From Aureimonas ureilytica DSM 18598 = NBRC 106430 (GTDB taxonomy: Bacteria > Pseudomonadota > Alphaproteobacteria > Rhizobiales > Rhizobiaceae): DNA of 64,000 nt. The stretch's first letter is position 1; each line of letters opens with the position of its first letter. The stretch lies in contig NZ_ARQE01000005.1 in NCBI RefSeq assembly GCF_000382705.1, positions 62,001 through 126,000 of the forward strand, written 5' to 3'. Shown here in pieces: positions 29,012-46,620 of the stretch. Under the pieces are notes generated by a model. It worked only from the letters and a program-made list of their open reading frames with translations, did not search any database and was not told the origin of the DNA. Both the position numbers and the translations under genes were made by a program.

Positions 29012-30436
29012 TCAGGCGGGTGACGCCCTGTCGAAGATGCGGCCCGGGTTGAGGATGTTGTTGGGATCGAATGCCCGTTTCAGCCGGCGCATCGCCTCGA
29101 TCTCGGCTTCGCTGCGCGTGAGATGCAGCCAGGGCTTCTTGTCGAAACCGATGCCGTGTTCGGCGGAGATCGAGCCGCCGCAAGCCGCCGCGCAGCGATA
29201 GACCGCGTCCATGGCCTCGAGGCCCTTTGGGGTGCGGATCACGTAATGCACGTTCCCGTCCCCCATATGGCCGAAGAGGAAGAAGTCCGTGTGCGGGTCG
29301 ATCCGTCGAACCGCCGCCTGGCTTTCTTCCAGGAAGACGGCCGTTCGATCGACGGGAACGCTGACGTCGCCGCTGATGATGTGGTCCATCGTACGGACGA
29401 AATCGCTGCCGCTGTCGCGGATCGTCCAGAGGGATGCGAACTCGCGCTGGGATTGCGAGACGACCGCATCCAAGGCGACCCCATCCTCGATCGCCGCCAT
29501 CAAGGCGGCCTCGAACCCGTCCACGACGCCTTCCTCGCCGAAGGCCTGGATTTCGGTCAGGATGTAGATCGGCGCGCGGGTTTCGAGCGGCGCGGCCCTG
29601 CCGAGAAAACCGAGAATCCCCTCGAAGATCGCCGCGCCCATGAACTCGAAGGCGGACAGGCTGGAGCCGAACGCGGCTCGCAGCCGGTGCAGAAGCGCGA
29701 GCCCGGCCTCCACTGAGGGAACGGCCAGAAGCGCGGCGACCTCGCGGCGCGGCAGGGGGTGGAGACGCAGGCGCGCCCTCGTGACGACCCCGAGCGTGCC
29801 CTCGCTGCCGATGAAGAGCTGGTTCAGATCGTATCCCGTGTTGTCCTTCGCCAGCCCCCGCAGCGAGGACAGAACCGTGCCGTCGGCGAGGACAGCCTCC
29901 AGCCCCGCCACCTGCGCCCGGAACATGCCGTAGCGCAGCACGCGGATGCCCCCGGCATTGGTGGCGATGTTGCCGCCGACCGTCGCCGTGCCGCGCGCGC
30001 CGAGATCCACCCCGACGAGGAAGCCTGCGGCCTGCGCCGCCTCCTGCACCCGCTGCAAGGGCGTGCCGGCAGCGGCCAGCACCGTGGCGCCTGCCTCCTC
30101 GATCGCCCCGAGCTCCGTCATCCGCTCGGTGGACAGGACGGCCTCGCCCTCCACGATCCGGTGGCCGCCCGAAAGCCCGGTCCGACCGCCCTGAACGGCG
30201 AGCGGCTGGCCGGCGGCATCGCAGAGCTTGAGGCAGGCCGCGACCTCTTGCGTCGTGCCCGGCCGCAGGACGAAGCGAGGCACCGCCGAGGGCTTCGCGC
30301 GCAGGTCCTCGCGATAGCCCGCGCCGATCGCGTCGCCCACCAGGAGGGCCTGGGCGGGCAAGAGGGACGACAATCGATCCAGGAGCGGCCCGTCGGGCCC
30401 TTGTCCGACGGAGGCCTTCGCTCGGGAAACGGACAT
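29012..30436 (-). CDS. FAD-linked 2-hydroxyacid dehydrogenase (GlcD/D-lactate dehydrogenase type)
   Basis: A 474-residue flavoenzyme of the vanillyl-alcohol-oxidase fold. The PCMH FAD domain includes LAVQGGRTGLSGGH and the pyrophosphate loop GTATVGGNIATNAGG, followed by GSEGTLGVVTRA. The C-terminal FAD-oxidase domain has FGHMGDGNVHY and SAEHGIG, with the GHIGDGN/E-H-G set that binds the metal and substrate carboxylate. It oxidises a D-2-hydroxyacid (glycolate, D-lactate or D-2-hydroxyglutarate class). It is the last gene of the leftward arm of the divergent locus, after an aldehyde dehydrogenase. Confidence 0.9.
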   Translation of the reverse strand: MSVSRAKASVGQGPDGPLLDRLSSLLPAQALLVGDAIGAGYREDLRAKPSAVPRFVLRPGTTQEVAACLKLCDAAGQPLAVQGGRTGLSGGHRIVEGEAVLSTERMTELGAIEEAGATVLAAAGTPLQRVQEAAQAAGFLVGVDLGARGTATVGGNIATNAGGIRVLRYGMFRAQVAGLEAVLADGTVLSSLRGLAKDNTGYDLNQLFIGSEGTLGVVTRARLRLHPLPRREVAALLAVPSVEAGLALLHRLRAAFGSSLSAFEFMGAAIFEGILGFLGRAAPLETRAPIYILTEIQAFGEEGVVDGFEAALMAAIEDGVALDAVVSQSQREFASLWTIRDSGSDFVRTMDHIISGDVSVPVDRTAVFLEESQAAVRRIDPHTDFFLFGHMGDGNVHYVIRTPKGLEAMDAVYRCAAACGGSISAEHGIGFDKKPWLHLTRSEAEIEAMRRLKRAFDPNNILNPGRIFDRASPA

Positions 30437-30509
30437 GGCGGCGTCACCTTCGACCTTCGGGGAAAAAGGAGCGGCAGGACCGCCGCTCCGGCAGCCGGCT
30501 CGGCGGCTC

Positions 30510-31952
30510 CTAGGCGCTCGTCTGCGTGACGAAGCGGGTGACGAGATAAGCCTCGATCGCTTCCGATCCGCCCTCGGTTCCGTAGCCGGAGTCGCGCACG
30601 CCGCCGAACGGCACCTCGGGCAAGGCGAGGCCCATGTGGTTGATCGTCGTCATGCCGGCCTCGACCCGCGACCCGATCGCCTCGACACTGGCGGCCGACC
30701 CGGCGAAAGCGTAGGCCGCCAGACCATAGGGCAGCCGGTTGGCCTCGGTGATCGCCTCGCCCAGCGTTGCGAAGCGGTTGACCACCGCCACCGGGCCGAA
30801 AGGCTCCTCGTTCATGATGCGCGCCTCGACCGGCACGTTGGAGAGAACCGTCGGCTCGAAGAAATGGCCCTGGTTGCCGATCCGGTTGCCGCCGGTCTCG
30901 AGCTTCGCGCCACGCTCCACCGCATCCGCGATCATGCCTTCGAGCGCGGGAATGCGCCGCTCGTTGGCCAAGGGCCCCATGCGGCTCGCCTCGTCGAGAC
31001 CGTTGCCGACCTTGATCGCGCGCGCGGCTTGCGTGAAACCTTGAAGGAAGCGATCGAACACGCCGTCCTCGACCAGGAAGCGGGTCGGAGATATGCAGAC
31101 CTGTCCCGCATTGCGGAACTTCGAGGCCGCCAGCAGCGACACGGCCTTGTCGATATTGGCGTCCGCGCAGACGATCGCCGGGGCGTGGCCGCCGAGTTCC
31201 ATCGTGGCGCGCTTCATGTGCCGGCCGGCCAGCGCCGCCAGATGCTTGCCCACCGGCGTCGATCCCGTGAACGAGATCTTGCGGATCGTGGGATGGGCGA
31301 TGAGATAGTCCGAAATCTCGGCCGGGGAGCCGAAGACGAGATTGACGGCGCCCGACGGCAGTCCGGCATCGGCGAAGGCCCGGATCAAGGCGGCGGGCGC
31401 GGCCGGTGTCTCCTCGGGCGCCTTCACAATGATCGAGCACCCGGCCGCGATCGCGGCCGACAGCTTGCGCACCACCTGATTGATGGGAAAGTTCCAGGGC
31501 GTGAAGGCCGCCACCGGGCCGACCGGCAGCTTCACGGCCATCTGCAGGACGCCGGGCGCACGCGCGGGGATGATCTGCCCATAGGTGCGGCGCGCCTCCT
31601 CGGCGAACCATTCGATGATGTCCGCCCCGCTCAGGACCTCGCCGCGCGCCTCGGCCAACGGCTTGCCCTGTTCCATCGTCATCATCGGGGCGATGGCGTC
31701 CGCGCGCTCGCGCAGGAGCGCCGCGGCACGCCGCATCACTTGCGAGCGTTCCAGCGCGCCCGTGCGGCTCCAGACCTCGAAGCCCGCCTCGGCGGCTTCG
31801 AGCGCCGCGTCGAGATCGTCCCGCCCGGCATAGGCCAGCCGGCCGATCGCCTCGCCCGTCGCGGGGTTCTGAACCTCGATGGAACGGCCGTCGCGGGCGC
31901 CGCGCCATTGCCCGGCGATGAAGAGCTGCGTGTCGGGATAGGTCGTTGTCAT
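30510..31952 (-). CDS. NAD(P)-dependent aldehyde dehydrogenase (succinate-semialdehyde type)
   Basis: A 480-residue enzyme converting a semialdehyde to a carboxylic acid. Signatures are FTPWNFPIN, the NAD strand [17 protein letters not shown] with the general-base Glu, and [10 protein letters not shown] with the nucleophile Cys. The C-terminal EEPFGPV and [10 protein letters not shown] are typical of GabD/alpha-ketoglutarate-semialdehyde dehydrogenases. ATG 31952 begins the conserved region. It follows the IclR gene and precedes the flavin dehydrogenase (73 bp), all on the minus strand. True substrate unknown. Confidence 0.9.
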
Positions 31953-32083
31953 CGGAAATTCCAATTCCAGTCGATAGGACGATGGAGGCGTGCGACCGCC
32001 CGCCGGGCCTGGCGGCCGGCCGGCGCGACGCGGGAGGCGAAGGTCAGGGCCGCCCGATCCGGAGGCGTCTCGATCACCCGCCC

Positions 32084-32989: not shown

Positions 32990-34084
32990 TTACTGCGCGA
33001 GAAGCGCGTTGATCTTCTCCTGCGCATATTCCTCGTTGGTGGACTTCCCGTCCGGGGAAACGGCGCCCCAATAGTCCGGGCTCCACTCGATGGCCTTTGC
33101 GAGGTTGGTCGGATTGTTGGCCCAGTAGATCGAAAGGTCCTTGTTGGCGGCCTCGAACACGACGGGCGACGGCAGGGCGACCGGATAGGCCTCCGTCAGG
33201 CGTGCGGCGCGTTCGGCGTCGAGGCGCCAGGACAGGAGCTTCAGCGCGTTGTCGTAGTGTGGCGCGCCCTTCGGGATCGAGAAGAAGTCGTAATACACGA
33301 AGCCCTGGTTCCACTCGACCTCCAGCGGCGCGCCGTCCAGCGCGAGCTTGCTCATCGAGCCCGTGTAGGCCATGCACATGTCCGCTTCGCCGTCGAGCAG
33401 GAGCTGCGGCGGCTGGGCCGAGGTCGTCCACCACTTCACCACCTGCGGCTTGATCTCGGCGACCTTCTTGAGCGCGCGCTCCATGTCGATCGGGTAGAGC
33501 TTGTCCTTCTCGACCCCATCGGCCATCAGCGCCGCTTCCATCACGAAGCGCGGCCAGGCCGGCAGGCAGCGGCGGCCGGGAAACTTCTCGGTGTTCCAGA
33601 AGTCGGCCCAGCTCTTGGGCGCGTCGTCGCCGGAGTATTTCTCGGTGTTGTAGGCGAGGCTGACGCCGATCACCTGAAGCGCGACGCCCTTCGGGCGCTT
33701 GAGATTGTCGGGCATGGCGGCCAGCGTCTTCTGGGCCGTATCCGACAGCTTGGAATAGTCGATGTCGGCGAGGCAGCAGTCGCCCAGAAGCTTGGTTTCC
33801 TGATCGAAGATGAAGGTGAGGTCCCATTCGGTCTTGCCGGCCTCGACCTGCGCCTTGATCTTCGGCCCGCTGCGCGCCTCCTGCACGGTGACGACCCTGA
33901 TCCCCGTTTCCTTCTCGAAGGGGCCGTACATCACTTGGCGCAGCGCCTCGCCATAGCCGCCGCCGGGGTCCTGCATCACGACCTCGCCGCTCTGCGCGAG
34001 CGCCGTGGACGCCGCTCCCATCCAGAGGGCCGCCGCGACGATCCCGCCGGCGAAGGGCTTGAGGCCCGAGTTCATTCGCATCAT
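32990..34084 (-). CDS. ABC transporter periplasmic binding protein (spermidine/putrescine-type)
   Basis: A 364-residue exported protein with a signal peptide ending at ALAQS. It has the type-II periplasmic-binding layout of PotD-like proteins: DPGGGYGEAL, KTEWDLTFIFDQET, WADFWNTEKFPG, and the ordered YTGSMSKLALDG segment. A CC pair in GDCCLADID is unusual. The start at 34084 has GGGAG six bases upstream and restores the signal peptide. Binding proteins of this type carry many small anionic or cationic compounds, so polyamine specificity is not established. It follows the fused permease in the leftward arm. Confidence 0.85.
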   Translation of the reverse strand: MMRMNSGLKPFAGGIVAAALWMGAASTALAQSGEVVMQDPGGGYGEALRQVMYGPFEKETGIRVVTVQEARSGPKIKAQVEAGKTEWDLTFIFDQETKLLGDCCLADIDYSKLSDTAQKTLAAMPDNLKRPKGVALQVIGVSLAYNTEKYSGDDAPKSWADFWNTEKFPGRRCLPAWPRFVMEAALMADGVEKDKLYPIDMERALKKVAEIKPQVVKWWTTSAQPPQLLLDGEADMCMAYTGSMSKLALDGAPLEVEWNQGFVYYDFFSIPKGAPHYDNALKLLSWRLDAERAARLTEAYPVALPSPVVFEAANKDLSIYWANNPTNLAKAIEWSPDYWGAVSPDGKSTNEEYAQEKINALLAQ

Positions 34085-34228: not shown

Positions 34229-36030
34229 TCAGGCGACGCCGCGCGAGCGGGCGAGCACGGGCCGGGCCAGCGCGATCCCGCCGATCACCAGCAGCACTTC
34301 GAGCGTCGAGACCACCGCCAGCACAGGGTTGAGCTGGTAGTTGATGTCGGCCCAGAGGCGCAGCGGCAGGGTCTGGAGGTAGGGGCTCGACAGGAACATG
34401 GTCAGAACCAGCTCGTCGAAGGAATGAAGGAAGGCGAAGAAGGCCGCGGCGCCGAGACCCGGCGCGATCGACGGAAGCGTGACGGTGCGGAACACGGTGA
34501 GCGGCGAGGCTCCATGAACGGCGGCTGCCTGTTCCAGGCGCGTGTCGACGCCCTGCAGCGAGGCGCACAGGATCACCACGACGATGGGCAGGCCGCCGAT
34601 CGCGTGCGCGCCCGCCAGGCCCCAGACCGAGCCGACCAGGTCCCAGCGCACGAAGAGAGAGTAGAGCGACAGGCCGAGCACCACGGGGGGGACGATCACC
34701 GGGCTGACCAGAAGCAGCATGACGACCGATTTTCCCGGGATGCGGCTGCGCACCACGCCCATCGCCGCCGCCGTTCCGAGCGTGACCGCGATCGCCGCCG
34801 ACAGGAAGGCGATCATCGCCGAGTTGCGGAAGGCCGCCATCCATTGCGGATCGGAAAAGAACTTGGCGTACCACCGGACCGAGAACCCGGGCGGCGGAAA
34901 GGTGAGATAGATGGCGCTCGAGAAGGAGATGATCCCCACGATGACGATCGGCAGGACGAGGGTCGCGATCACGAGACCGCCCATGCCACGGATGGTCAGC
35001 GATCCGACCCAGCCGGGCAGCGCCGACAGGGCGCGCAGGATCGGCCAGCCCAGGCGGTCCGCAAGGGCCATGCCGAGCCGGGAGCGCGCGGAGGTCCGCG
35101 TTCGCTCCGCCGTCCTGGCTGAGGCGACGGGTTTGGACGCCGCCTCCTCCAGCTTGGCGCCGCCCCAGATGAACTCGAATCCGAGGATGCGGCCGGCGAT
35201 CGCCACCACAATGAGCGTGATGGTCAGGAGCACCACGGCCAGCGCCTGAAGAAAGCCCTCGCTCGTCGCGAAGTCCGCCTGCTGGGTGATGTGCATGGCG
35301 AACATCATGTCGCCCGGACCGCCCAGCAGCGTCGGCGTGATGAAGAAGCCGATCGCCGACACGAAGACGAGAAGGAAGCCAGCGCCCGCGCCCGGCAGCG
35401 TCAAGGGCAGGAGCACACGCCAGAAGGTCGCGAGCGGGCCCGCGCCCGAGGCCTGCGCGGCCCGCGTGAGGGCGGGGTCCAGCCGCGACACGCTGGAATA
35501 GATCGACAGGACCATGATGGGCAGGAGCACGGCCGTCATGCCGAGAAGCACCGTGCCGCGATTGAACAGAAGCTGGGCCGGCTCGCCGAGAATGCCGATC
35601 TGGACGAGGAGCTTGTTGATCGGCCCGTTGCGGCCGAGCAGCACCATCCAGGCATAGGTCCGGATGAGGATCGCGATGAAATAGGGAAGAACCACCGCCG
35701 TCGCGACGAGAAGCTGCGTGAGGCCCCGGGTGCGGTGGATCAGGAAGGCGGCGGGATAGCCGAACAGGAGGCAGAGCCCCGAAACGGTGAGCGCGATCTG
35801 CATCGTGCGAACCAGCGCGTCCCAGTAGAGCGAGGTCGCGAAGATGCGCTCGAAATAGCCCCAGGGCGTCGCGCCGGCGAAGCTGATGCGAACGAGATCG
35901 ATCAACGGCAGAAGGTAGATCGAACCGAGGAACAAGGCGGCCGGCAGAAGCAGCCAGGCGGGGCTCTTCACCCTTTGGCGCCAGTCGGACAGGTCGATGC
36001 CGCGCCGTTCGGACGTGCGGGTCAGGCTGC

Positions 36031-36034
<4 letters not shown>
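34229..36034 (-). CDS. ABC permease, two PotB/PotC-type domains fused in one chain
   Basis: A 601-residue inner-membrane protein. Residues about 1-300 match a PotB-like permease with coupling segment LTRAAQASGAGPLATFW, and about 330-601 match a PotC-like permease with LEQAAAVHGASPLTVF. A linker rich in Ala/Arg/Ser/Thr (about 300-350) joins them. Usual systems encode these as two genes. ATG 36034 overlaps the ATPase stop as ATGA; an upstream open frame is an ATPase-gene shadow. Confidence 0.9.
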
Positions 36035-37170
<1,136 letters not shown>

Positions 37171-37185: not shown

Positions 37186-37202
37186 GTTCTATTATTTAGA
37201 AC
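37186..37202. promoter_or_regulatory. palindromic operator 1 (putative IclR site)
   Basis: GTTCTA-TTATT-TAGAAC, 6-bp arms and a 5-bp spacer, ends 15 bp upstream of the ATPase start. It has the same design as the two palindromes on the other side of the promoter region. An extra half-site GTTCTA lies at 37219-37224. Confidence 0.65.
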
Positions 37203-37238: not shown

Positions 37239-37267
37239 TTGTCAAGCCATTCCCCCGCCGATATTCT
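37239..37267 (+). promoter_or_regulatory. promoter of the rightward arm
   Basis: TTGTCA (37239-37244) and TATTCT (37262-37267) are 17 bp apart. On the minus strand the overlapping hexamer 37245-37240 reads TTGACA, so the same bases may serve as -35 for the leftward arm. Operator 2 overlaps the -10. Confidence 0.55.
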
Positions 37268-37279
37268 GCAATTCAGAAT
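37263..37279. promoter_or_regulatory. palindromic operator 2 (putative IclR site)
   Basis: ATTCTG-CAATT-CAGAAT, 6-bp arms and 5-bp spacer, covers the -10 of the rightward promoter. Its centre is 20 bp (about two turns) from that of operator 3. Confidence 0.65.
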
Positions 37280-37282
37280 AGT

Positions 37283-37299
37283 GTTCCAAATTGTGGAAC
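37283..37299. promoter_or_regulatory. palindromic operator 3 (putative IclR site)
   Basis: GTTCCA-AATTG-TGGAAC is a perfect palindrome with 6-bp arms and 5-bp spacer, 40 bp before the CoA-transferase start. The consensus of the three sites is approximately RTTCYR-N5-YRGAAY. Confidence 0.7.
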
Positions 37300-37338: not shown

Positions 37339-38214
37339 GTGCTGACGGATCTGCGATCGATGGCCAGTTTCGTGCGTTCGGGCATGCAGGTGGCGCTGCC
37401 GGTGGACTATGCCGGCGTCTCCATGGCCCTCACCCGCCCCCTGATCGAGACCGGCGCGCGAGACCTGCATCTCGTGTGCGTGCCGACCGGCGGCCTGCAG
37501 GTCGATCAGCTGATCGGCGCCGGCCTGGTGCGTACCGTGGAGACGAGCGCCGTGTCGCTGGGAGAGGCCGGCGGCGCGCCGTGCTTCAACCAGGCGGTCA
37601 AGGACGGAACGGTCCAGGTGATGGACGCGACCTGTCCCGCCATTCATGCCGGCCTGATGGCCGCCCAGAAGGGCGTGCCGTTCATCCCCATTCGCGGCCT
37701 GATCGGCACGGACATCCTGAAACACCGGCCGGATTGGCGCGTGATCGACGATCCGTTCGCGCCGACGCCCGAGCCGATCGTCCTCATCCCCGCGATCCTG
37801 CCGGATGTCGCCATCTTCCATGCGCCGATGGCCGACCGCTTCGGCAATGTCTGGATCGGACGGCGGCGCGAACTGGCCGCCATGGCCTATGCCGCCCGCC
37901 GCACCCTCGTCACCGTCGAGCGCGTCGTGGAAACGAACCTCCTCGCGCAGGAGACGACGGCCGCCGGCGTGCTGCCGTCGCTCTATGTCGACGCGGTGGC
38001 CGAGGCCCCCAAGGGCGCCTGGCCCTACGGATTGTGGGGCGAATATGCGCCCGACGCGGCGGAGCTCGCCGCCTATGCCGCCGCCGCGCGCACGCCGGAG
38101 GGTTTTGCCCGCTACATGGATCGCTCCATCGTGGATCGCCCCGGGGTGGATCGCTCCCCGGCGGATCGCCCCGTCGCGGATCGGCCCGGCACGGAGCCTG
38201 CCCTGTCATGCTGA
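37339..38214 (+). CDS. CoA-transferase family I, subunit A (glutaconate/3-oxoacid type)
   Basis: A 291-residue subunit that pairs with the next gene to move CoA from a donor thioester to a carboxylate. It has the Rossmann-type CoA-transferase fold; LHLVCVPTGGLQVDQLIGAG, VPFIPIRGLIGTD and FGNVWIGRRRELAAMAYAA are subunit-A marks. GTG 37339 is chosen because GGGAGG lies 5 bases upstream and the earlier ATG sits inside operator 3. The C-terminus carries five Asp-Arg repeats not expected in the family (38119-38193). The next gene overlaps it by 7 bp. Confidence 0.85.
   Translation: MLTDLRSMASFVRSGMQVALPVDYAGVSMALTRPLIETGARDLHLVCVPTGGLQVDQLIGAGLVRTVETSAVSLGEAGGAPCFNQAVKDGTVQVMDATCPAIHAGLMAAQKGVPFIPIRGLIGTDILKHRPDWRVIDDPFAPTPEPIVLIPAILPDVAIFHAPMADRFGNVWIGRRRELAAMAYAARRTLVTVERVVETNLLAQETTAAGVLPSLYVDAVAEAPKGAWPYGLWGEYAPDAAELAAYAAAARTPEGFARYMDRSIVDRPGVDRSPADRPVADRPGTEPALSC
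38119..38193 (+). repeat. five tandem 15-bp repeats in the CoA-transferase A gene
   Basis: Five imperfect 15-bp units, each starting GATCG, encode DRSIV-DRPGV-DRSPA-DRPVA-DRPGT near the protein's C-terminus. They are in frame and low in hydrophobic residues, so they probably form a flexible tail that arose by slippage. Confidence 0.8.
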
Positions 38215-38981
38215 TCCTGCCGCGCGAAATCCTGATCGTCTCCATCGCCCGGCTGCTGGAGGGCGTGCGCCACGTCGCGGTCGGGGCGTCCTCGCCCATT
38301 CCCGCCGCCGGCGCCATGCTGCGCCGCGCCCTGAACGAGACGTCCGGCGCCCCGCCCGTGCGCCTGTCGATCCTCGGTTCGGTGGAGCACAACTTCTTCA
38401 CCAACGGTTCGGCCGAGCTGTTCGACTGTGCCGGCCAGGGACGCATCGACGCCTTCTTCCTCGGCGGCGGGCAGATCGACGGCCAGGGCAACATCAATCT
38501 CGTCGGCGTCGGCGACTATCCGCGCTCCAAGGTGCGCTGGCCCGGCTCCTTCGGATCGGCCTATCTTTATTTCGTGGTGCCGCGCGTCATCCTGTTCCGC
38601 GAGGAACACAGCCCCCGCGTCCTCGTGGAGGCGGTCGATTTCGTGAGCGCGCCGGGCGTCAGCCCCGCCAACGTGCCCCGGACCGGCGGCCCGCATGCCC
38701 TTCTCACCGGCATGGGCCTGTTCCGCTTCGACCGGAGCGAAGGCCGCTTCGCGCTGGAAAGCACGCATCCCGGCCACAGCCTCGCCGACATCCGGGCGGC
38801 CACCGGCTTTCGCTTCGCCCATGACGAAACGCCCCGGGAGACCGAACGGCCCGACGCGCCGACGCTCGCGCTGCTTCGCACACGCGTGCTCGACGAGCTT
38901 TCCGAAACCTATCCCGAGTTCGCCGGCCAGATGTCGCGAGACATCGACGCTCTTGCGGCGTCCCGCTCGCTCGCCTCCTGA
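38208..38981 (+). CDS. CoA-transferase family I, subunit B
   Basis: A 257-residue partner of the upstream subunit A. It has the subunit-B marks GSVEHNFFTNGSAELFDCAGQ-type core, the FFLGGGQIDGQGNIN loop and FVVPRVILFREEHSPR. In Gct-type enzymes the catalytic Glu is in subunit B (the SVEHN region is the likely place). ATG 38208 overlaps the A-gene stop by 7 bp. Substrate unknown. Confidence 0.83.
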   Translation: MLILPREILIVSIARLLEGVRHVAVGASSPIPAAGAMLRRALNETSGAPPVRLSILGSVEHNFFTNGSAELFDCAGQGRIDAFFLGGGQIDGQGNINLVGVGDYPRSKVRWPGSFGSAYLYFVVPRVILFREEHSPRVLVEAVDFVSAPGVSPANVPRTGGPHALLTGMGLFRFDRSEGRFALESTHPGHSLADIRAATGFRFAHDETPRETERPDAPTLALLRTRVLDELSETYPEFAGQMSRDIDALAASRSLAS

Positions 38982-38996: not shown

Positions 38997-40193
38997 ATGT
39001 CGAACCACGGCTCGCTCGCCAACATCCGGGTCATTGACGCCAGTCGCGTGCTCGGCGGCCCCTATTGTGGACAGATCCTCGCCGACCATGGCGCCGACGT
39101 CGTCAAGATCGAGCCGCCGGCCGGCGACGAGACGCGCGGCTGGGGCCCTCCCTTTCTGGACAGCACGGCAAGCTACTTCCTCGGGCTCAACCGCAACAAG
39201 CGAGGCATGGCGCTCGACATGTCGCAGCCCGCCGGTCAGGAGCTCCTTCTGACCCTGCTCGAAACGGCCGATGTCTTCATCGAGAACTTCAAGACCGGCA
39301 CGCTGGAGCGCTGGGGCCTGACGCGCGAGGAACTGGAGCGCCGCTTTCCTCGCCTCGTGCATTGCCGCGTGTCCGGCTTCGGCTCCGACGGACCGATGGG
39401 CGGCATGCCCGGCTATGATGCGGCCATCCAGGCCTCGGCCGGCATCATGAGCGTCAACGGCGAGGTCGGGGGCGAGCCCTTGCGCGTCGGTCTGCCGGTG
39501 GTGGACATGGTCACCGGCCTCAACGCCGCGATCGGCATCCTGATGGCGCTGAACGAGCGCCAGACCAGCGGACGGGGCCAGTTCGTCGAGGCGGCGCTCT
39601 ACGACTGCGCCATCTCGCTGCTCCATCCCCATCTGCCCAATCACTACCTTTCCGGCAAGGTCGCCAAGCCCACCGGCAACGCCCATCCCAACATCTGCCC
39701 CTACGACACGTTCGCGACGGCCGACGCCAAGATCTTCCTGGCGGTCGGAAACAACCGGCAGTTCGCGAGCCTCTGCGCGGTCCTGGGGCGGCCCGACCTG
39801 CCGGACGACGCGCGCTTTGCCACCAACGGCACGCGCAACGTCCACCGGGACGCCCTGAAGATCGAGCTGGAAAGCGCCCTGAGCGCGTTCGAATGCGCGC
39901 CGCTGGCCGATCGCCTCATCAAGGCGGGCGTTCCCTGCGGGGCGGTGCGCACGATCGACCAGGTTTTGGCCGATCCCCACACGATCCATCGCGAGATGGT
40001 GGTCGACATCGACGCCTATCGCGGCACCGGAACGCCCATCAAGATGGCGCGGACCCCGGCTTCCTATCGCCGCGCGCCGCCGCAATTCGCCGAGCACACG
40101 GATGCGATCCTCGCGGAAGCGTCGATCGACGCGGAGGGCTACCGAGCGGTGCTGCCGGGCCTTGCGCACAAGCCCCGCGCCCGGATCGCCTGA
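38997..40193 (+). CDS. CaiB/BaiF-family (class III) CoA-transferase
   Basis: A 398-residue class III enzyme, paralogous to that at 26756-27985. Family marks are IRVIDASRVLGGP, LADHGADVVKIE, LNRNKRGMALDM, and the catalytic-Asp segment GLPVVDMVTG. It forms an operon with a two-subunit family I transferase, so the locus encodes two unrelated CoA-transfer systems, which could act on different acids. A typical ribosome site AGAGGA lies upstream. Substrate unknown. Confidence 0.9.
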   Translation: MSNHGSLANIRVIDASRVLGGPYCGQILADHGADVVKIEPPAGDETRGWGPPFLDSTASYFLGLNRNKRGMALDMSQPAGQELLLTLLETADVFIENFKTGTLERWGLTREELERRFPRLVHCRVSGFGSDGPMGGMPGYDAAIQASAGIMSVNGEVGGEPLRVGLPVVDMVTGLNAAIGILMALNERQTSGRGQFVEAALYDCAISLLHPHLPNHYLSGKVAKPTGNAHPNICPYDTFATADAKIFLAVGNNRQFASLCAVLGRPDLPDDARFATNGTRNVHRDALKIELESALSAFECAPLADRLIKAGVPCGAVRTIDQVLADPHTIHREMVVDIDAYRGTGTPIKMARTPASYRRAPPQFAEHTDAILAEASIDAEGYRAVLPGLAHKPRARIA

Positions 40194-40264: not shown

Positions 40265-41812
40265 ATGAATGGCGCCGACCTTTTATGCGAGACGCTTCTC
40301 GCCGACGGTATCGACATCTGCTTCGCCAATCCGGGCACGTCCGAAATGCATTTCGTGGCGGCGCTCGACCGCCAGCCGCGCATGCGCTGCATTCTCGGCC
40401 TCTTCGAGGGGGTCGTGACCGGAGCGGCCGACGGCTACGCCCGCATGGCGGACAAGCCGGCGGCCACGCTCCTGCATCTCGGGCCCGGGCTCGCCAACGG
40501 TCTGGCGAACCTGCACAACGCGCGCCGGGCCCGCTCGCCCATCGTCAACGTCGTGGGGGACCACGCGGTCGATCACCTGCCCTTTGATGCGCCGCTGACC
40601 TCCGACATCGAGTCGCTAGCAAAGCCCATGTCGCATTGGGTCGGCCGCGCCGAGACGGCGGACGGCATCGGCCAGCGCACGCAGGAGGCGATCCGCGCCG
40701 CGCGCTCCGCGCCCGGCCACATCTCGACGCTGATCCTCCATGCCGACGCGGCCTGGACCGAGACCCGGGCGAGCGTGCCGACGCCCTCGGCGCCTCCCTC
40801 CCCCGCCGCTCCCGACGGCGCGCGCATCGCGGCCGCCGCCCGCGCCCTGGCGCTCGGCCGCAACACCACGATCCTGGCGAGCGGCCGGGCGCTCCGCGAG
40901 GAGGAACTGGCGCTTCTCGACCGGATCGCGTCGCGAACCGGCGCCCGGCTGATGGCCCAGCAGTCCAACGGCCGCATGCATCGCGGCGCGGGCCGCGTGT
41001 CGGTGGACCGGGTTCCCTATGTCATCGACAAGGCGCTGGCGGCCTTCCGCGAAACCGAGCAGGTCGTTCTGGTGGGCGCCAGGACCCCGGTCGGCTTCTT
41101 CGCCTATCCCGGCAAGCCGAGCAGCATGCTGCCGGAAGGCTGCGTGGTTCTCGATCTCACGGATGAGGGCGCCGATCTCTCCGCCGCGATCCGGGCGCTC
41201 GCGGACGAAGTCGGCATTTCCGGCATCGCGCCGCGCTTGGGGGTCCGCCACCGCCCGCCCGTGCCGCAGGGCAAGCTGACCCCGGATGCGATCGCCGCCG
41301 TTCTGGCGCATCACATGCCCCCCGACAGCATCGTCTGCGACGAGTCGGTGAGTTCGGGGCGGGATTTCTTCAACGTCACGCACGGGGCCGAGCCCCACGA
41401 CTTCCTGCAGCTGACGGGCGGGGCCATCGGCATCGGCCTGCCCCTGGCGGCGGGCGCCGCGATCGCCTGCCCCGATCGCAAGGTCGTGGTGCTGCAGGCG
41501 GACGGGAGCGGCATGTACACGGTGCAGGCGCTCTGGACCCATGCCCGGGAGCGGCTCGACATCTGCACCATCGTCTTCTCCAACCGGCGCTATCAGATTC
41601 TCCTGGGCGAGTTGGCGAATGTCGGCGCGGGCGCACCGGGCCGCAACGCCAGCCGGATGCTCGATCTCGACGATCCCGCGATCGACTGGGTGTCGCTGGC
41701 CCAAAGCATGGGCGTCGAAGCCGCGCGGGCCGAAACGGTCGAGACCTTCGAGGATCTTCTGAAAATCGCCTTTTCGCGGCCCGGCCCGTTCCTTATCGAA
41801 GCGGCGATCTGA
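40265..41812 (+). CDS. thiamine-diphosphate enzyme (acetolactate-synthase/benzoylformate-decarboxylase type)
   Basis: A 515-residue TPP enzyme, shorter than the usual 550-600. The catalytic Glu is in GLFEGVVTGAADGYARM, and the central domain and C-terminal TPP domain follow. The Mg-TPP motif starts ADGSG rather than GDG and ends in a Ser-Asn-Arg-Arg loop; the Asp and Asn ligands are kept. It could decarboxylate a 2-oxoacid or CoA ester. Its place beside a CaiB gene recalls the Frc-Oxc pair of oxalate degradation, but it does not look like oxalyl-CoA decarboxylase. Confidence 0.82.
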   Translation: MNGADLLCETLLADGIDICFANPGTSEMHFVAALDRQPRMRCILGLFEGVVTGAADGYARMADKPAATLLHLGPGLANGLANLHNARRARSPIVNVVGDHAVDHLPFDAPLTSDIESLAKPMSHWVGRAETADGIGQRTQEAIRAARSAPGHISTLILHADAAWTETRASVPTPSAPPSPAAPDGARIAAAARALALGRNTTILASGRALREEELALLDRIASRTGARLMAQQSNGRMHRGAGRVSVDRVPYVIDKALAAFRETEQVVLVGARTPVGFFAYPGKPSSMLPEGCVVLDLTDEGADLSAAIRALADEVGISGIAPRLGVRHRPPVPQGKLTPDAIAAVLAHHMPPDSIVCDESVSSGRDFFNVTHGAEPHDFLQLTGGAIGIGLPLAAGAAIACPDRKVVVLQADGSGMYTVQALWTHARERLDICTIVFSNRRYQILLGELANVGAGAPGRNASRMLDLDDPAIDWVSLAQSMGVEAARAETVETFEDLLKIAFSRPGPFLIEAAI

Positions 41813-41826: not shown

Positions 41827-44151
41827 ATGGCCACGATCAAGCGCGTCCCCCATTGCAGCCATTGGGGCGCCTACACCATCCTGATGGACGGCGAGACGAT
41901 CGCCGGCGTCGAGCCCTTCGCGTTCGATCCCGCGCCCTCGCCCATCATCCACTCCGTGCGCGAATGGGCCCGCCCCGAACGCCGCGTGCTCCAGCCGATG
42001 GTGCGCGCCGGCTGGCTGGCGAAGCGCGAAGGCAGCGACCGGCGCGGACGCGGCACCGAGAGCTTCGTGCCGGTGAGCTGGGACGAGGCGACGACGCTCG
42101 TCGCCGACGAGATCCGGCGGGTCGCGGGGACGTTCGGCAACGCATCGATCTTCGCCGGCTCCTACGGCTGGACGAGCTGCGGGCGCTTCCACCACGCCTC
42201 GTCGCTCCTGAAGCGCATGATGAACCTGTCGGGCGGCTATACGGGCCATGTCGACACCTATTCGATCGCCGCCGGACCGGTGATCCTGCGGCACACGCTC
42301 GGCGACGATCGCGCCTGCGGTGGTCAGGCCAACACGCTCGACACGGTGGCCGAGAACACCGAGACACTGGTGGTTTTCGGCTCGCTCTCGCCGCGCACGG
42401 CCCAGAGCGAAGCGGGCGGCATCGCCACCCATTCCCTCGAAATCTATCTCAAGCAGCTCACCCAGCGCGGCGTGAAGGTGGTTCTCGTGTCGCCCCTGCG
42501 CGACGATCTGCCCGATTTCGTGGACGCCGAATGGTGGCCGATCCGCCCCAACACCGATACCGCGCTCATGCTGGGTCTGGCCGGCGAGATCGTGAAGGCC
42601 GATCGCCACGACACGGCGTTTCTGGATCGCTGCACCAGCGGGGCGGACAAGCTCCTCGCCTATCTCGACGGCTCGACCGACGGCGAGTGCAAGGACGCGG
42701 CCTGGGCCGCGCGCATCACCGGGCTCGACGCCGGGAAGATCGCGGGCCTTGCCCGGCAACTCGTCGAAACGCGCTCCATGCTGACGGTCAGCTGGAGCCT
42801 GCAGCGGGCGCACCATGGCGAGCAGCCCTTCTGGGCCGCGCTGAGCCTCGCCTCGATCGTCGGGCAGATCGGGCTGCCGGGCGGCGGAATGGGCTTCGGC
42901 TACGCATCGCTCGGCGGCAACGGCGCGCCCATCAATCTCGGCAAGTCGCCCGCCATCTCGCAGCTTCGCAAGCCCATCGACAGCTTCATTCCCGTCGCCC
43001 GCATCAGCGACATGCTGCTTCATCCCGGCGCCGAGTTCACCTACGAGGGGCAGACGCGCACCTATCCCGATGCGCGCCTCGTTTATTGGGCGGGCGGCAA
43101 TCCCTTCCACCACCACCAGGATCTGAACCGCTTGTCGGAGGCCTGGACCCGGCCCGAGACGATCATCGTCCAGGACCCGATGTTCACCGCGACCGCCCAG
43201 CGCGCCGACATCGTGCTGCCCGCCAACACGTCGATCGAGCGCAACGATCTGGCCGGCAACAAGCGCTCGGATTTCGTGATCGCCATGCACCGGGCGATCC
43301 CCTCGCTCGGCCAGTCGCGCTCCGACTTCGACATTTTCGACGAGATCGCCGGAAAGCTCGGCGTCGGCGCGGCCTTCAACGAGGGCCGCGACGAGATGGG
43401 CTGGCTGCGCCATCTCTACGAGGCGAGCCGCACCGATGCGCGCGAGCGCCTCGACTTCGACATGCCGGACTTCGACACGTTCTGGGAACAGGGCTACGCC
43501 CGCTGCCCGGTGAAGTCGCACAATGTCTATCTTCAGGAATTCCGCGCCCGGCCGGACGAGCATCCGCTCGCCACCGAAAGCGGTCGGATCGTTCTGGGCA
43601 GCCAGACGCTGGAGCGTCTCGGCTACGAGGATTGCCGCGCCCATGCCGCTTGGATCGAACCGGCCGAGTGGCTGCGGTCCGGGTCCGAGGACGACCGGCT
43701 GCATCTCATTTCGCACCAGCCGCCCGGCCGCCTTCACAGCCAGCTCGAAACCGGCGCGGCCAGCATGGCGCAGAAGCGCGACGGCCGCGAAACGGCGCGC
43801 CTTCATCCGGACGACGCGCGAAGGCGCGGCATCGGCGACGGGCAGGCGATCCGCCTGTGGAACGAGCGCGGCGCGTGTCTCGCCACCGCCGACCTGTCCG
43901 ATACGGTTCGCGAGGGCGTCGTGGTTCTGCCGACCGGCGCCTGGTTCACCCCGACCGGCAATAGCGGCCTCGAGATCGCCGGCAACCCGAACGTTCTGAC
44001 GCTCGATGTCGGCACCTCGCGCTTCGGCCAGGGCTGCTCGGCCCATACCTGTCTCGTTCACGTGGAGCCCTTCGCGGGAGACGCCGGCGACGCGATCGAC
44101 ATCTATGGGGAAAAGCTGTCCGCCCTCCTGACGCAAAGGGAGCCCGCATGA
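41827..44151 (+). CDS. molybdopterin oxidoreductase, DMSO-reductase family (BisC/TorZ-like)
   Basis: A 774-residue bis-MGD enzyme. The N-terminus (PHCSHWGAY) lacks the Cys set for an iron-sulfur cluster, and GSYGWTSCGRFHH carries the Ser ligand of Mo, as in DMSO, TMAO and biotin-sulfoxide reductases. The C-terminal binding domain has RLHSQLE and PTGAWF. There is no Tat signal, so it should be cytoplasmic. It lies inside a carbon-catabolic operon, where a sulfoxide or N-oxide substrate is possible. AGGAGG precedes the start; its stop overlaps the next gene (ATGA). Confidence 0.88.
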   Translation: MATIKRVPHCSHWGAYTILMDGETIAGVEPFAFDPAPSPIIHSVREWARPERRVLQPMVRAGWLAKREGSDRRGRGTESFVPVSWDEATTLVADEIRRVAGTFGNASIFAGSYGWTSCGRFHHASSLLKRMMNLSGGYTGHVDTYSIAAGPVILRHTLGDDRACGGQANTLDTVAENTETLVVFGSLSPRTAQSEAGGIATHSLEIYLKQLTQRGVKVVLVSPLRDDLPDFVDAEWWPIRPNTDTALMLGLAGEIVKADRHDTAFLDRCTSGADKLLAYLDGSTDGECKDAAWAARITGLDAGKIAGLARQLVETRSMLTVSWSLQRAHHGEQPFWAALSLASIVGQIGLPGGGMGFGYASLGGNGAPINLGKSPAISQLRKPIDSFIPVARISDMLLHPGAEFTYEGQTRTYPDARLVYWAGGNPFHHHQDLNRLSEAWTRPETIIVQDPMFTATAQRADIVLPANTSIERNDLAGNKRSDFVIAMHRAIPSLGQSRSDFDIFDEIAGKLGVGAAFNEGRDEMGWLRHLYEASRTDARERLDFDMPDFDTFWEQGYARCPVKSHNVYLQEFRARPDEHPLATESGRIVLGSQTLERLGYEDCRAHAAWIEPAEWLRSGSEDDRLHLISHQPPGRLHSQLETGAASMAQKRDGRETARLHPDDARRRGIGDGQAIRLWNERGACLATADLSDTVREGVVVLPTGAWFTPTGNSGLEIAGNPNVLTLDVGTSRFGQGCSAHTCLVHVEPFAGDAGDAIDIYGEKLSALLTQREPA

Positions 44152-44828
44152 CCGGGGTGAGCGAAACGGACCTCCAGCACCGACGGGACATCGTCGCGGC
44201 CTGCCGCCAGATGACGGCGCTCGGCATCAACCAGGGCACATCCGGCAATATCAGCGTCCGGGTCGAGGGGGGCCTCTTCGTCACCCCGTCCGGCCGCGCC
44301 TATGACGAGATGGAGCCCGAGGATATCGTGTTCATGCGATGGGACGGCTCCTGGGATGCGACGCCCGGCAACGTTCCCTCCAGCGAATGGCGCTTTCACC
44401 TCGACATCCTCAGGGCCAAGCCCGAGGTGAACGCGGTGGTTCACGCCCATCCGACCTATTGCACGATCCTCGCCATTCTCAACCGGCCGATCCCCGCGAT
44501 CCACTACATGATCGCGGTCGGCGGGGGAAACGACATCCCCTGCGCGCCCTACGCCCAATACGGCACGTCGGAGCTTTCCGATGCGGCCGTCGCAGCCTTG
44601 ACCGAACGGCGGGCCTGCCTCCTGGCCCATCACGGCCTGATCGCGACCGGCCCGCATCTGCGCAAGGCGCTGTGGCTGGCGGTCGAGGTCGAGACGCTCG
44701 CGCGCCAGTATCACGGCTGCCTCCAGATCGGCGAACCGCCGCTTCTGCCCGATGCCGAGATCGACAGCATCCTCGAACGCTGGGGCCAGTACGGGTTGCG
44801 CGACAGGCCCGCCATCGAGGCCGCCTGA
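44148..44828 (+). CDS. class II aldolase/adducin-domain protein (fuculose-phosphate-aldolase type)
   Basis: A 226-residue zinc-dependent aldolase or decarboxylase. NQGTSGNIS binds phosphate, HAHPTY supplies two zinc His, and AHHGLI supplies the third; SSEWRFHLDI holds the catalytic Glu region. Family members cleave sugar phosphates or act on 3-oxo-tetronate phosphates (OtnC type). It overlaps the molybdoenzyme gene by 4 bp and precedes a PfkB-type sugar kinase, which would provide a phosphorylated substrate. Confidence 0.85.
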   Translation: MTGVSETDLQHRRDIVAACRQMTALGINQGTSGNISVRVEGGLFVTPSGRAYDEMEPEDIVFMRWDGSWDATPGNVPSSEWRFHLDILRAKPEVNAVVHAHPTYCTILAILNRPIPAIHYMIAVGGGNDIPCAPYAQYGTSELSDAAVAALTERRACLLAHHGLIATGPHLRKALWLAVEVETLARQYHGCLQIGEPPLLPDAEIDSILERWGQYGLRDRPAIEAA

Positions 44829-44873
44829 CGGCGACCCTTTCCCCTCCCCCTTCATCCAGCAGGAGCGGCCTTC

Positions 44874-45827
44874 ATGGCGCACACCCACGACGTCAGCGTT
44901 TGCGGCAGCTACATTCTCGACATCTGCGGGTTTCCGGTCACGGAAACGCCGGCGGGCGGCGGGCGCGCCCTGATCGAGGAAATCCGCCTGTCGGTGGCGG
45001 GAACGGCCGGCGGCACGGTGGTTCCCTGCGCGCGCCTCGGCCTCCAGGCGCTGGCGGTGGGCGCGGTCGGATCGGACGAAAAGGCCGATTGGGTGCTGGA
45101 TGCGATGCGCCGCGACGGGATCGACGTGTCCCGGATGGAGCGCATGGCGGGCGTGCCGACCTCGGCGACGATCCTGCCGATCCGCCCCGACGGCTCACGC
45201 CCGGCGCTGCACGCGCGCGGCGCCTCGGCCCGCTGGCGCATCTCCCCCGAGGTGCAGGAGGCGGCCTGCCAAGCCCAGGTGCTGCATCTCGGTGGTGTCG
45301 GCTCGATCCTGGCGATGGATGGCGAGCCCTCCCGCGCGCTTCTGGAGATGGCAAAGGCCAAGGGTTGCGTCACGACGCTCGACCTCATCTCGGCGCGCGA
45401 CGAGACGCTGTCGCTCGTGGAGCCGCTCCTGCCCTTCACCGACTTCTTCATGCCGAGCATCGACGAGGCGGCGGTGATGGTGGGAAGCCCCGATCCGCGA
45501 GCCTGCGCAGAGTTCTTCATCGGCAAGGGGGCCGGCGCCTGCGCGATCTCGCTGGGAGCCGACGGCTCCTACATCCAGACGCGCGAGGGGCGAAGCTTCA
45601 CCGTGCCCGCCTTCGACATCACGGTTCGCGACACGTCGGGCTGCGGCGATTCCTACACGGGCGGCTTCATCGCCGGCCTCGTGCGCGGCTGGGATCTTCT
45701 CGACTGCGCCCGACTTGCCACCGCGACCTCGGCGATCGTGGCGACGGGCGTCGGCTCGGGCGCCAATCTCGTGTCCTTCGAAGAAACCGTCCACGCCATG
45801 AACACGCTGCCGGTGAAGGGCGCCTGA
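44874..45827 (+). CDS. PfkB-family carbohydrate kinase
   Basis: A 317-residue kinase phosphorylating a sugar, sugar acid or nucleoside. The N-terminal glycine motif is VAGTAGGTVV, and the C-terminal signature reads RDTSGCGDSYTGGF, with the catalytic Asp kept but Cys at the usual Ala. AGGAG lies 8 bases upstream. It stands between a class II aldolase and an SDR; kinase then aldolase is a logical order for a phosphorylated-sugar route. Confidence 0.87.
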   Translation: MAHTHDVSVCGSYILDICGFPVTETPAGGGRALIEEIRLSVAGTAGGTVVPCARLGLQALAVGAVGSDEKADWVLDAMRRDGIDVSRMERMAGVPTSATILPIRPDGSRPALHARGASARWRISPEVQEAACQAQVLHLGGVGSILAMDGEPSRALLEMAKAKGCVTTLDLISARDETLSLVEPLLPFTDFFMPSIDEAAVMVGSPDPRACAEFFIGKGAGACAISLGADGSYIQTREGRSFTVPAFDITVRDTSGCGDSYTGGFIAGLVRGWDLLDCARLATATSAIVATGVGSGANLVSFEETVHAMNTLPVKGA

Positions 45828-45873
45828 GACAGGCCCTTCACCCCGTCGAGCCATCCAACCGAAAGCAACAGCC

Positions 45874-46620
45874 ATGACCAGACATGCCATCGTGACGGGC
45901 GCCAGCCGCGGCATCGGCCGCGCCATCGCCCTCGGCCTTGCGGAGCGCGGCTACGATCTCGCGCTCAACGACATCGCGGCGCAGGACGGCGATCTCGGCG
46001 AAACCGCAGCGATGATCGAAGCGCTCGGCCGACGCTGCGTGCGCGTCCTCGCCGATGTCAGCCAGCTGGAGGACTGCCGCCGGGCGGTTCGGGAAGCCGT
46101 CGAAGGGCTCGGCCATATCGACGTCCTCGTCAACAATGCGGGCATCCTGCGCCTGGCGATGATCGAGGAGATGACGCCCGAGACCTGGGATCAGACCTTC
46201 GCGGTCAACACGCGGGGCGTCTTCCAGATGACGCAGGCCGTGATCGGCCACATGAAGGAGCGCCGCTACGGCCGCATCGTCAACATCGCTTCGCTCGCCG
46301 CGCGCACCGGCGGCCCCGGTCAGGCCCATTACTCGGCCTCGAAATCGGCCGTTGTCGGCTTCACCCGCGTCTCGTCGATGGAGTTCGCCGGACACGGCAT
46401 CACCGTGAACGCGGTGTGCCCGGGGATCATCCTCACCGAGATGGGCAAGAACAACCTGCGCGATCCCGAGCGCGTCGCCTATTTCGAGAAGATCACCGAC
46501 GTTCATCGCCTCGGCCAGCCGGAAGACGTGGTCGGCCCCGTCGCCTTCTTCGCCTCCGACGATTCCGCATTCGTCACGGGACAGGCGCTGAATGTCGACG
46601 GAGGTATCTTCTACAGCTGA
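45874..46620 (+). CDS. short-chain dehydrogenase/reductase (FabG-like)
   Basis: A 248-residue SDR. The nucleotide loop is TGASRGIGRA, the NNAG motif is VNNAGIL, the catalytic Ser is in NIASLAARTG and the Tyr-Lys pair in YSASKS. The Asp in ALNDI suggests NAD(H). It is the last gene of the rightward arm and might oxidise or reduce a polyol or hydroxyacid. A LacI-family gene converges on its 3' end. Confidence 0.9.
   Translation: MTRHAIVTGASRGIGRAIALGLAERGYDLALNDIAAQDGDLGETAAMIEALGRRCVRVLADVSQLEDCRRAVREAVEGLGHIDVLVNNAGILRLAMIEEMTPETWDQTFAVNTRGVFQMTQAVIGHMKERRYGRIVNIASLAARTGGPGQAHYSASKSAVVGFTRVSSMEFAGHGITVNAVCPGIILTEMGKNNLRDPERVAYFEKITDVHRLGQPEDVVGPVAFFASDDSAFVTGQALNVDGGIFYS

What the first reader, a model, noticed from the sequence alone, without database searches (positions are those of the whole stretch)
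29012..46620. A 17.6-kb divergent catabolic locus with no named pathway
The leftward arm has a PotABCD-type importer with a fused permease, IclR, a semialdehyde-type ALDH and a flavin 2-hydroxyacid dehydrogenase. The rightward arm has a family I CoA-transferase, a class III CoA-transferase, a TPP enzyme, a Mo oxidoreductase, a class II aldolase, a PfkB kinase and an SDR. Both arms start in one control region and each is co-directional, so they look like one regulon. I know of no published pathway that needs all of these. Two parts are chemically coherent: kinase plus aldolase for a phosphorylated sugar or sugar acid, and CoA activation plus TPP decarboxylation for an acid.
Basis: partly seen in the sequence, partly recalled or inferred. 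Interest (0 to 1): 0.75.

Follow-up and report, generated by a model that had tools for sequence, protein, structure and literature searches.

The report
Undescribed IclR-controlled catabolic regulon
A bacterial gene set that seems to import and break down one unidentified, probably sugar-like acid is a single, recurring, separately switched unit found in scattered bacteria, and I found no described pathway that matches its chemistry.

Summary
In detail: 14 genes at 29012-46620, two co-directional arms leaving one control region. Both arms form one unit. Searching only with the importer's binding protein, 10 of 297 genomes of the order have it (the window's own included), and all 10 carry the right-arm gene CtB 4.0-5.4 kb away. 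The control region carries a palindrome, GTTCY-N7-RGAAC, found in 25 of 26 importer-bearing loci and 0 of 15 loci with CtAB but no importer; it is the likely IclR operator. Of 31 loci (30 distinct), 30 have a FucA-type aldolase and exactly one of two kinase/dehydrogenase pairs: PfkB+SDR (12) or FGGY kinase+2-hydroxyacid dehydrogenase (18). CaiB and TPP are optional; GlcD and ALDH look peripheral. The "family I CoA-transferase" lacks the expected glutamates and has an invariant cysteine (46 of 46). Best reading: uptake, oxidation, phosphorylation and aldol cleavage to DHAP plus an aldehyde, with a decarboxylation/CoA branch; the S-oxide-reductase-type Mo enzyme hints at a sulfoxide or thioether. 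The substrate is unknown. Three text searches for the gene set listed no description.

The parts
29012..30436 (-). FAD-linked 2-hydroxyacid dehydrogenase (GlcD-like), peripheral
   Evidence: Pfam FAD_binding_4 + FAD-oxidase_C; 58-67% homologue in 11 of the other 30 loci, several of which are cut short
30510..31952 (-). aldehyde dehydrogenase, semialdehyde type, peripheral
   Evidence: Pfam Aldedh; 75% homologue in L118 and L124; 76% homologue starting 1.5 kb before a TPP gene in L059
32084..32836 (-). IclR-family regulator
   Evidence: Pfam HTH_IclR + IclR_C; present in 21 of 21 loci whose held sequence reaches past the binding protein, window included
32990..34084 (-). ABC substrate-binding protein (PotD/opine-type class)
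   Evidence: SBP_bac_8; close homologue of PDB chain 3rpw_A, E 6.8e-193
34229..36034 (-). ABC permease, two BPD_transp_1 halves fused
   Evidence: Pfam, 2 stretches
36031..37170 (-). ABC ATPase (ABC_tran + TOBE_2)
   Evidence: Pfam
37186..37202 (.). operator-like palindrome O1, by the ATPase start
   Evidence: a TTGTCAA element (TTGACA on the minus strand) starts 53 bp to its right
37239..37267 (+). rightward promoter-like site, second hexamer overlapping O2
   Evidence: consensus match only, 9 of 12; shuffles mean 0.2
37263..37279 (.). operator-like palindrome O2
37283..37299 (.). operator-like palindrome O3
37339..38214 (+). CtA, CoA-transferase-fold alpha subunit with invariant Cys99
   Evidence: CoA_trans; IpdA alignment; Cys in 46 of 46
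38208..38981 (+). CtB, beta subunit; no invariant Glu near residue 60
   Evidence: CoA_trans; AibB/GctB/IpdB relatives; residue counts
38997..40193 (+). CaiB, class III CoA-transferase (optional)
   Evidence: CoA_transf_3; 21 of 31 loci
40265..41812 (+). TPP-dependent 2-oxoacid decarboxylase-like enzyme (optional)
   Evidence: Pfam; NF005760 767.4 bits over cut-off 363; nearest solved: benzoylformate decarboxylase, E 9.5e-38
41827..44151 (+). BisC-type Mo S/N-oxide reductase
   Evidence: Pfam Molybdopterin; TIGR00509 994.2 bits; Tyr-Gly-Trp motif in 31 of 31 sequences
44148..44828 (+). class II FucA-type aldolase
   Evidence: Aldolase_II; NF005984 264 bits, cut-off 264; His pairs, the catalytic Glu block and the GN block kept in 30 of 30 sequences, with some S/T and S/A exchanges
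44874..45827 (+). PfkB-family kinase
   Evidence: PfkB; best NCBIfam IolC-type, 117.6 bits, below cut-off 300
45874..46620 (+). SDR dehydrogenase
   Evidence: adh_short_C2; 79-85% homologue in 11 relative loci, always with PfkB

Best explanation
This is one patchily distributed, probably horizontally acquired catabolic regulon for a single, unidentified, poly-hydroxylated organic acid or sugar conjugate. Steps supported by comparison: (1) an IclR-type regulator very probably acts on GTTCY-N7-RGAAC operators at both divergent promoters; (2) the ABC importer, CtAB, BisC, the aldolase and a dehydrogenase+kinase pair form the conserved core. Inferred steps: the ligand is imported; SDR (elsewhere a 2-hydroxyacid dehydrogenase) oxidises a hydroxyl to a ketone; PfkB (elsewhere an FGGY kinase) phosphorylates the neighbouring carbon; and the FucA-type metal aldolase cleaves the ketose-1-phosphate-like product to DHAP and an aldehyde. 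GlcD-type oxidation, TPP decarboxylation and ALDH turn a 2-hydroxy acid into a shorter aldehyde and then an acid. CaiB makes its CoA thioester, and CtAB acts on an acyl-CoA or acid as a cysteine-dependent C-C or thioester hydrolase/lyase rather than a classical CoA-transferase. BisC probably reduces a sulfoxide (less likely N-oxide) in the ligand or an intermediate. Separate likelihoods: one regulon 0.95; DHAP-forming dehydrogenase-kinase-aldolase module 0.7; CtAB not a classical CoA-transferase 0.6; sulfoxide/thioether substrate 0.4.
For: Arms together: 10 of 10 SBP-bearing genomes of 297 (own genome included) have CtB 4.0-5.4 kb away; 6 of 6 in a search of 119 genomes with 3rpw_A as query, two of them among the ten. 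Left- and right-arm proteins share distance patterns, r 0.65-0.89, 0 of 2000 permutations as high (the permutations do not remove shared ancestry of the hosts). Operators: 25 of 26 importer loci, 0 of 15 CtAB-only loci; in 15 genomes 28 of 39 places of a stricter pattern lie at this locus. TTGTCAA (leftward -35 TTGACA) in 21 of 23 divergent regions. Swap: 30 of 31 loci have exactly one kinase/dehydrogenase pair, and three related loci combine the B-type aldolase with PfkB+SDR. Among loci not found through TPP, TPP is in 6 of 6 FGGY loci and 0 of 11 PfkB loci other than the window; each of the 20 TPP-bearing loci has HADH or a GlcD-type gene. TPP-ALDH neighbours in L059 and L114. SDR-PfkB-aldolase recurs as a module with sugar importers in L139 and L140. 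CtA Cys99 in 46 of 46, BisC Tyr-Gly-Trp in 31 of 31.
Against: No substrate, product or activity is shown. L032 keeps the importer, CtAB, CaiB and TPP but shows no aldolase, kinase, dehydrogenase pair or BisC within the stretch held. L047 has no operator match. BisC misses the curated cut-off of its family. The rhodanese next to BisC in 14 of 31 loci could serve Mo-cofactor sulfuration, so it is not evidence for a sulfur substrate. In MAFFT the AibB Cys56 column falls in a gap of all 46 CtB rows, so the CtB side of the active-site claim rests on the absence of any invariant Glu there. HADH and SDR are different families; their equivalence is inferred from mutual exclusion, and because TPP follows HADH the true equivalence may be SDR against HADH+TPP. 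In the relatives no consistent rightward -10 was seen at the TTGTCAA element.
Confidence: 0.5

Rival explanations
1. A sugar-acid or polyol pathway without any heteroatom: SDR, PfkB and aldolase give DHAP and glycolaldehyde or tartronate semialdehyde, GlcD and ALDH finish it, and BisC/AhpD-like genes are only repair or redox helpers.
For: PfkB's best NCBIfam match is the IolC type, though below cut-off; the same SDR-PfkB-aldolase module occurs with sugar importers in L139 and L140, where no BisC match was found; a galactarate-dehydratase-like gene (361.6 bits, cut-off 730.85) stands near TPP in L039.
Against: BisC is in 30 of 31 loci, too constant for an accessory; CtAB has no role in such a route.
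Confidence: 0.25
2. A new version of the DHAP shunt for a thioether pentose (methylthioribose-like): the aldolase gives DHAP and an (alkylthio)acetaldehyde, ALDH and CaiB/CtAB process the acid, and BisC reduces its sulfoxide.
For: The aldolase is 50-61% identical to the aldolase beside mtnK/mtnA in L141; CtA-CtB-CaiB stand in one Diaphorobacter region with cysteine dioxygenase and 3-sulfinopropanoyl-CoA desulfinase.
Against: MtnK and MtnA homologues: 0 of 48 loci. Many FucA-type aldolases reach 50-60% identity, so that figure says little. A 2-hydroxyacid dehydrogenase has no place in the known shunt (recalled).
Confidence: 0.15
3. Two pathways share one switch and one importer: kinase+aldolase for a sugar, CtAB/CaiB/TPP for a separate acid.
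For: CtAB-CaiB-TPP-Perox occurs without aldolase or kinase in L043, L046 and, with the importer, L032.
Against: One binding protein and one largely self-contained operator set; CtAB is in 31 of 31 importer loci and the aldolase in 30 of 31.
Confidence: 0.15
4. Oxalate-type catabolism (formyl-CoA transferase, oxalyl-CoA decarboxylase, formate dehydrogenase).
For: A class III CoA-transferase, a TPP enzyme and a Mo enzyme lie together.
Against: CaiB scores 210.9 against a cut-off of 504.2 for formyl-CoA transferase, and the Mo enzyme 118 against 666.25 for formate dehydrogenase; none of the 25 TPP families shown (of 53) is oxalyl-CoA decarboxylase.
Confidence: 0.03

Closest known systems
FucA-type DHAP pathways (L-fucose; 5-deoxyribose/methylthioribose DHAP shunt)
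   Same: kinase and a class II FucA-type aldolase; blocks I recall as DHAP- and metal-binding are conserved
   Different: no MtnK or MtnA; dehydrogenase where those pathways have an isomerase; CtAB, BisC, TPP and CaiB added
IpdAB, AibAB and glutaconate CoA-transferase (CoA-transferase fold)
   Same: alpha and beta subunits match 6co6, 5mzw and 1poi chains
   Different: IpdA's Glu105 position is an invariant Cys in CtA; no invariant Glu near CtB residue 60
BisC / DMSO reductase family
   Same: TIGR00509 994.2 bits; Tyr-Gly-Trp motif
   Different: just under the curated cut-off; embedded in a catabolic regulon
Benzoylformate decarboxylase-like TPP enzymes (NF005760)
   Same: full-length match 767.4 bits over cut-off 363
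   Different: named acetolactate synthase by NCBI; substrate unknown
myo-Inositol (Iol) pathway
   Same: logic of TPP enzyme, IolC-type kinase, aldolase, ALDH (pathway recalled)
   Different: PfkB far below the IolC cut-off; aldolase of the FucA family; no IolD among the 25 TPP families shown (of 53)

Membership tests
IclR-controlled divergent regulon | IclR gene in the locus | tested here: met
   21 of 21 loci whose held sequence reaches past the binding protein; 10 further loci are cut before that point
IclR-controlled divergent regulon | conserved palindromic operator in the control region | tested here: met
   25 of 26 importer loci, 0 of 15 others (400 bp upstream of CtA searched in those)
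IclR-controlled divergent regulon | IclR binds the operator | not testable with these tools
   needs a binding assay
DHAP shunt (MtnK/MtnA/Ald2) | FucA-type aldolase | tested here: met
   30 of 31 loci; 50-61% to the L141 aldolase
DHAP shunt (MtnK/MtnA/Ald2) | MtnK and MtnA homologues | tested here: not met
   0 of 48 loci; the queries found themselves in L141
Family I CoA-transferase | alpha/beta sequence homology | tested here: met
Family I CoA-transferase | catalytic Glu in the beta subunit (role recalled) | tested here: inconclusive
   no invariant Glu near CtB residue 60: E 32, A 6, R 4, K 4 of 46; alignment to AibB ambiguous there
IpdAB hydrolase | IpdA Glu105 (role recalled; the residue differs between 6co6 and 6coj) | tested here: not met
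   Cys99 in 46 of 46 CtA sequences
BisC S/N-oxide reductase (TIGR00509) | curated score | tested here: not met
   994.2 against 1017.55 bits
BisC S/N-oxide reductase (TIGR00509) | Tyr-x-Trp motif of S-oxide reductases (role recalled) | tested here: met
   31 of 31
myo-Inositol pathway | IolC equivalog score | tested here: not met
   117.6 against 300 bits
Oxalate catabolism | formyl-CoA transferase score | tested here: not met
   210.9 against 504.2 bits
Sulfonate (sulfoacetaldehyde) catabolism | SafD and Xsc scores | tested here: not met
   ALDH to SafD 266.4 against 700 bits; TPP enzyme to Xsc 63.2 against 676.4 bits

The most novel reading that the evidence does not exclude
The locus encodes an undescribed route for a sulfoxide- or thioether-bearing sugar acid. 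BisC reduces the sulfoxide so that the compound can enter the route, an interchangeable dehydrogenase/kinase pair and a FucA-type aldolase release DHAP, and CtAB is a new cysteine-dependent lyase or hydrolase evolved from the CoA-transferase fold that breaks the remaining carbon or sulfur bond.
Probability: 0.22. Interest if true: 0.75.

Novelty: new variant of a known kind. Interest (0 to 1): 0.5.

Why it matters
The same operator-defined gene set recurs in Hyphomicrobiales and Rhodobacterales, with one Burkholderiales relative that lacks the operator, so an environmentally common compound is probably eaten by a route that I could not find described. The module swap (PfkB+SDR for FGGY+2-hydroxyacid dehydrogenase) narrows the chemistry to a step that two unrelated enzyme pairs can do. 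CtAB gives a testable case of a CoA-transferase fold with a new active-site residue.

Tried and rejected
Oxalate (Frc/Oxc/FDH), myo-inositol, sulfoacetaldehyde-type sulfonate catabolism and the MtnK/MtnA DHAP shunt were tested by family scores or tblastn and not met. Sulfoquinovose-type logic (PfkB kinase, aldolase, ALDH, 2-hydroxyacid oxidation, TPP decarboxylation) was otherwise only considered.

The ligand of the binding protein could not be had: PDB 3rpw_A is a close homologue, but the tool gives neither organism nor ligand. I first took it from memory for a Rhodopseudomonas palustris protein. Four species of one genus with 95% homologues have 6.2-6.4 Mb genomes, the identity was not established, and the R. 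palustris ligand screen (PMC3223731: abstract and outline, passages and one section read) is therefore not used. Searches looked for that protein's ligand without use.

Text searches for the gene set gave nothing relevant (0 papers; 5 papers, judged unrelated from the listing). One search listed two Paracoccus papers on a guessed tag range, not read. One search listed 9 papers on related terms; passages of one, PMC6079011, were read, the others seen as listings only. No Rfam match in 28000-48000.

Selection bias: L032-L048 were found by TPP, so TPP frequencies are quoted apart for loci found by CtA, CtB or the binding protein. L116-L135 are 20 of the places listed, mostly from the top of the list, a few passed over. 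Ten loci are cut inside the binding-protein gene. Presence means at least 45% identity in the stretch held. The shuffle control was run only on the 25 loci that carry the motif. In one search the reversed-pattern control gave 21 strand matches in the 15 genomes against 68 for the pattern (palindromes count on both strands).
Full report
WHAT IS THERE. The window lies in a 5.09-Mb genome. Fourteen genes fill 29012-46620. Leftward from the control region: ABC ATPase, fused permease, binding protein, IclR, ALDH, FAD 2-hydroxyacid dehydrogenase. Rightward: CtA, CtB, CaiB, a TPP enzyme, a BisC-type Mo reductase, a FucA-type aldolase, a PfkB kinase, an SDR (families). Outside it lie a LacI-type regulator gene on the right and, on the left, a LysR gene and another class III CoA-transferase.

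THE TWO ARMS ARE ONE UNIT. The least biased test uses a left-arm query. The binding protein is found in 10 of 297 genomes of the order, the window's own included, at E 1e-120 or better. In the same genomes CtB lies on the same contig 4.0-5.4 kb away in 10 of 10. A second search, with 3rpw_A as query, of 119 genomes of one family gave 6 hits, two of them (G143, G236) among the ten; CtB stands beside the binding protein in all 6, and CtA too. Distances between loci for left- and right-arm proteins correlate (Perm/CtB r 0.82, Perm/BisC 0.89, SBP/CtB 0.65; 0 of 2000 permutations as high); these permutations do not remove shared host ancestry. None of the 20 genomes of the window's own family listed has CtB at E 1e-50, so the locus is patchy and probably acquired.

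THE SWITCH. The control region holds three 17-bp palindromes (37186, 37263, 37283). The form GTTCY-N7-RGAAC recurs in 25 of 26 importer-bearing loci examined, mostly one site by each arm (one site only in L132), and in 0 of 15 loci with CtAB but no importer. In the 25 positive loci there are 53 sites against a mean of 0.17 in shuffles; the shuffles were run on those 25 only. The exception is L047, where IclR lies co-directional before CtA. In 15 whole genomes 28 of 39 places of a stricter pattern are at this locus, and in the window's genome both are; 11 places lie elsewhere, 5 of them in one genome (G352), and were not followed. A TTGTCAA element, which reads TTGACA for the importer promoter, is kept in 21 of 23 divergent regions, with the left operator on its promoter side. 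The IclR gene is present in 21 of 21 loci whose held sequence reaches past the binding protein; ten further loci are cut before that point. Binding by IclR itself is inferred.

WHAT IS CORE AND WHAT VARIES. In 31 loci with binding protein and CtA (30 distinct; L048 and L144 are identical in CtB and SBP): CtB 31, BisC 30, aldolase 30, AhpD-like 'peroxidase-related' gene 27 (missing from the window, L047, L048, L144; no match in the window's genome, in a search without a positive control), CaiB 21, TPP 20, rhodanese 14. The kinase step comes in two forms that do not co-occur: PfkB+SDR in 12 loci, FGGY kinase+2-hydroxyacid dehydrogenase in 18, neither in L032. Three related loci (L121, L130, L148, one clade) join the aldolase of one form to the kinase of the other, which argues that both forms serve the same substrate. 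On a quick tree of four core proteins (29 loci) this needs at least 2 kinase changes. TPP goes with the FGGY form: among loci not found by TPP it is in 6 of 6 FGGY loci and in 0 of 11 PfkB loci other than the window. Each of the 20 TPP-bearing loci also has a 2-hydroxyacid dehydrogenase (HADH or GlcD type), and TPP sits next to an ALDH in L059 and L114. This supports 2-hydroxy acid, 2-oxo acid, aldehyde, acid as a branch.

THE ODD ENZYMES. CtA and CtB are relatives of family I CoA-transferases by sequence. The residue of IpdA that differs between deposits 6co6 and 6coj (E105, catalytic as I recall) aligns with Cys99 in CtA, invariant in 46 of 46 sequences, including CtAB pairs from other contexts. 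CtB has no invariant Glu near residue 60 (E 32, A 6, R 4, K 4 of 46). The correspondence with AibB Cys56 is ambiguous. The BisC-type enzyme keeps a Tyr-Gly-Trp motif in 31 of 31; I recall that the Tyr marks S-oxide over N-oxide reductases. The aldolase keeps the blocks expected of a DHAP-forming FucA enzyme in 30 sequences (block roles recalled).

OTHER CONTEXTS. CtAB-CaiB stands with BisC, the AhpD-like gene, a FAD-binding_3 protein and a TRAP importer in Sulfitobacter; with a ketol-acid-reductoisomerase-like gene, a TRAP-type importer, TPP and the AhpD-like gene in L043 (L046 has matching genes); and in one Diaphorobacter region with cysteine dioxygenase and 3-sulfinopropanoyl-CoA desulfinase. 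The SDR-PfkB-aldolase module stands with sugar importers in Mesorhizobium and Rhizobium. The locus therefore looks like an assembly of two portable modules under one switch.

MECHANISM AND LIMITS. The best reading is import, oxidation, phosphorylation and aldol cleavage to DHAP plus an aldehyde, with a 2-hydroxyacid/decarboxylation/CoA branch and a sulfoxide reductase. The sulfur idea rests on BisC and the Diaphorobacter neighbours and is only moderately likely; the rhodanese may serve the Mo cofactor. No substrate is known. Searches of 5.39 million open papers for the gene set listed no description; subscription journals are mostly not covered.

Noticed in passing
window 26756-27991 (-): A second class III CoA-transferase, 45% identical to CaiB; 59% identical to a Diaphorobacter gene next to 3-sulfinopropanoyl-CoA desulfinase.
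   Followed up: partly
window 46681-53060: Right of the locus a LacI-type regulator gene is followed by what looks like another binding-protein ABC importer gene set (by eye from the reading frames).
   Followed up: no
L119, L122, L123, L125-L129, L133-L135: CtAB pairs at 65-71% (CtA) and 72-78% (CtB) identity stand without the importer; TctC-type solute receptors occur beside them in L119 and L127 and an acyl-CoA dehydrogenase in L127, with the same invariant Cys.
   Followed up: partly
L116:7028-7792 and L117:12217-12978: A 254-aa protein between the AhpD-like gene and the aldolase, 87% identical in the two loci, with partial matches in L120 and no Pfam match; it looks hotdog-like by eye only.
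   Followed up: partly
L039, L040: TPP and AhpD-like genes stand beside a zinc-type reductase gene of one cluster with an AcuI-like one in L045; a galactarate-dehydratase-like gene was identified in L039; no CtAB was found there.
   Followed up: partly
window 37291: The first possible start (TTG) of the CtA frame falls inside palindrome O3, so the gene probably starts at GTG 37339.
   Followed up: yes
L143: A Haematobacter BisC homologue (68%) lies near malate synthase G and glycolate-oxidase-like genes.
   Followed up: no
G352 and other genomes: Eleven of 39 places of the operator pattern lie away from the locus; their neighbours were not read.
   Followed up: no
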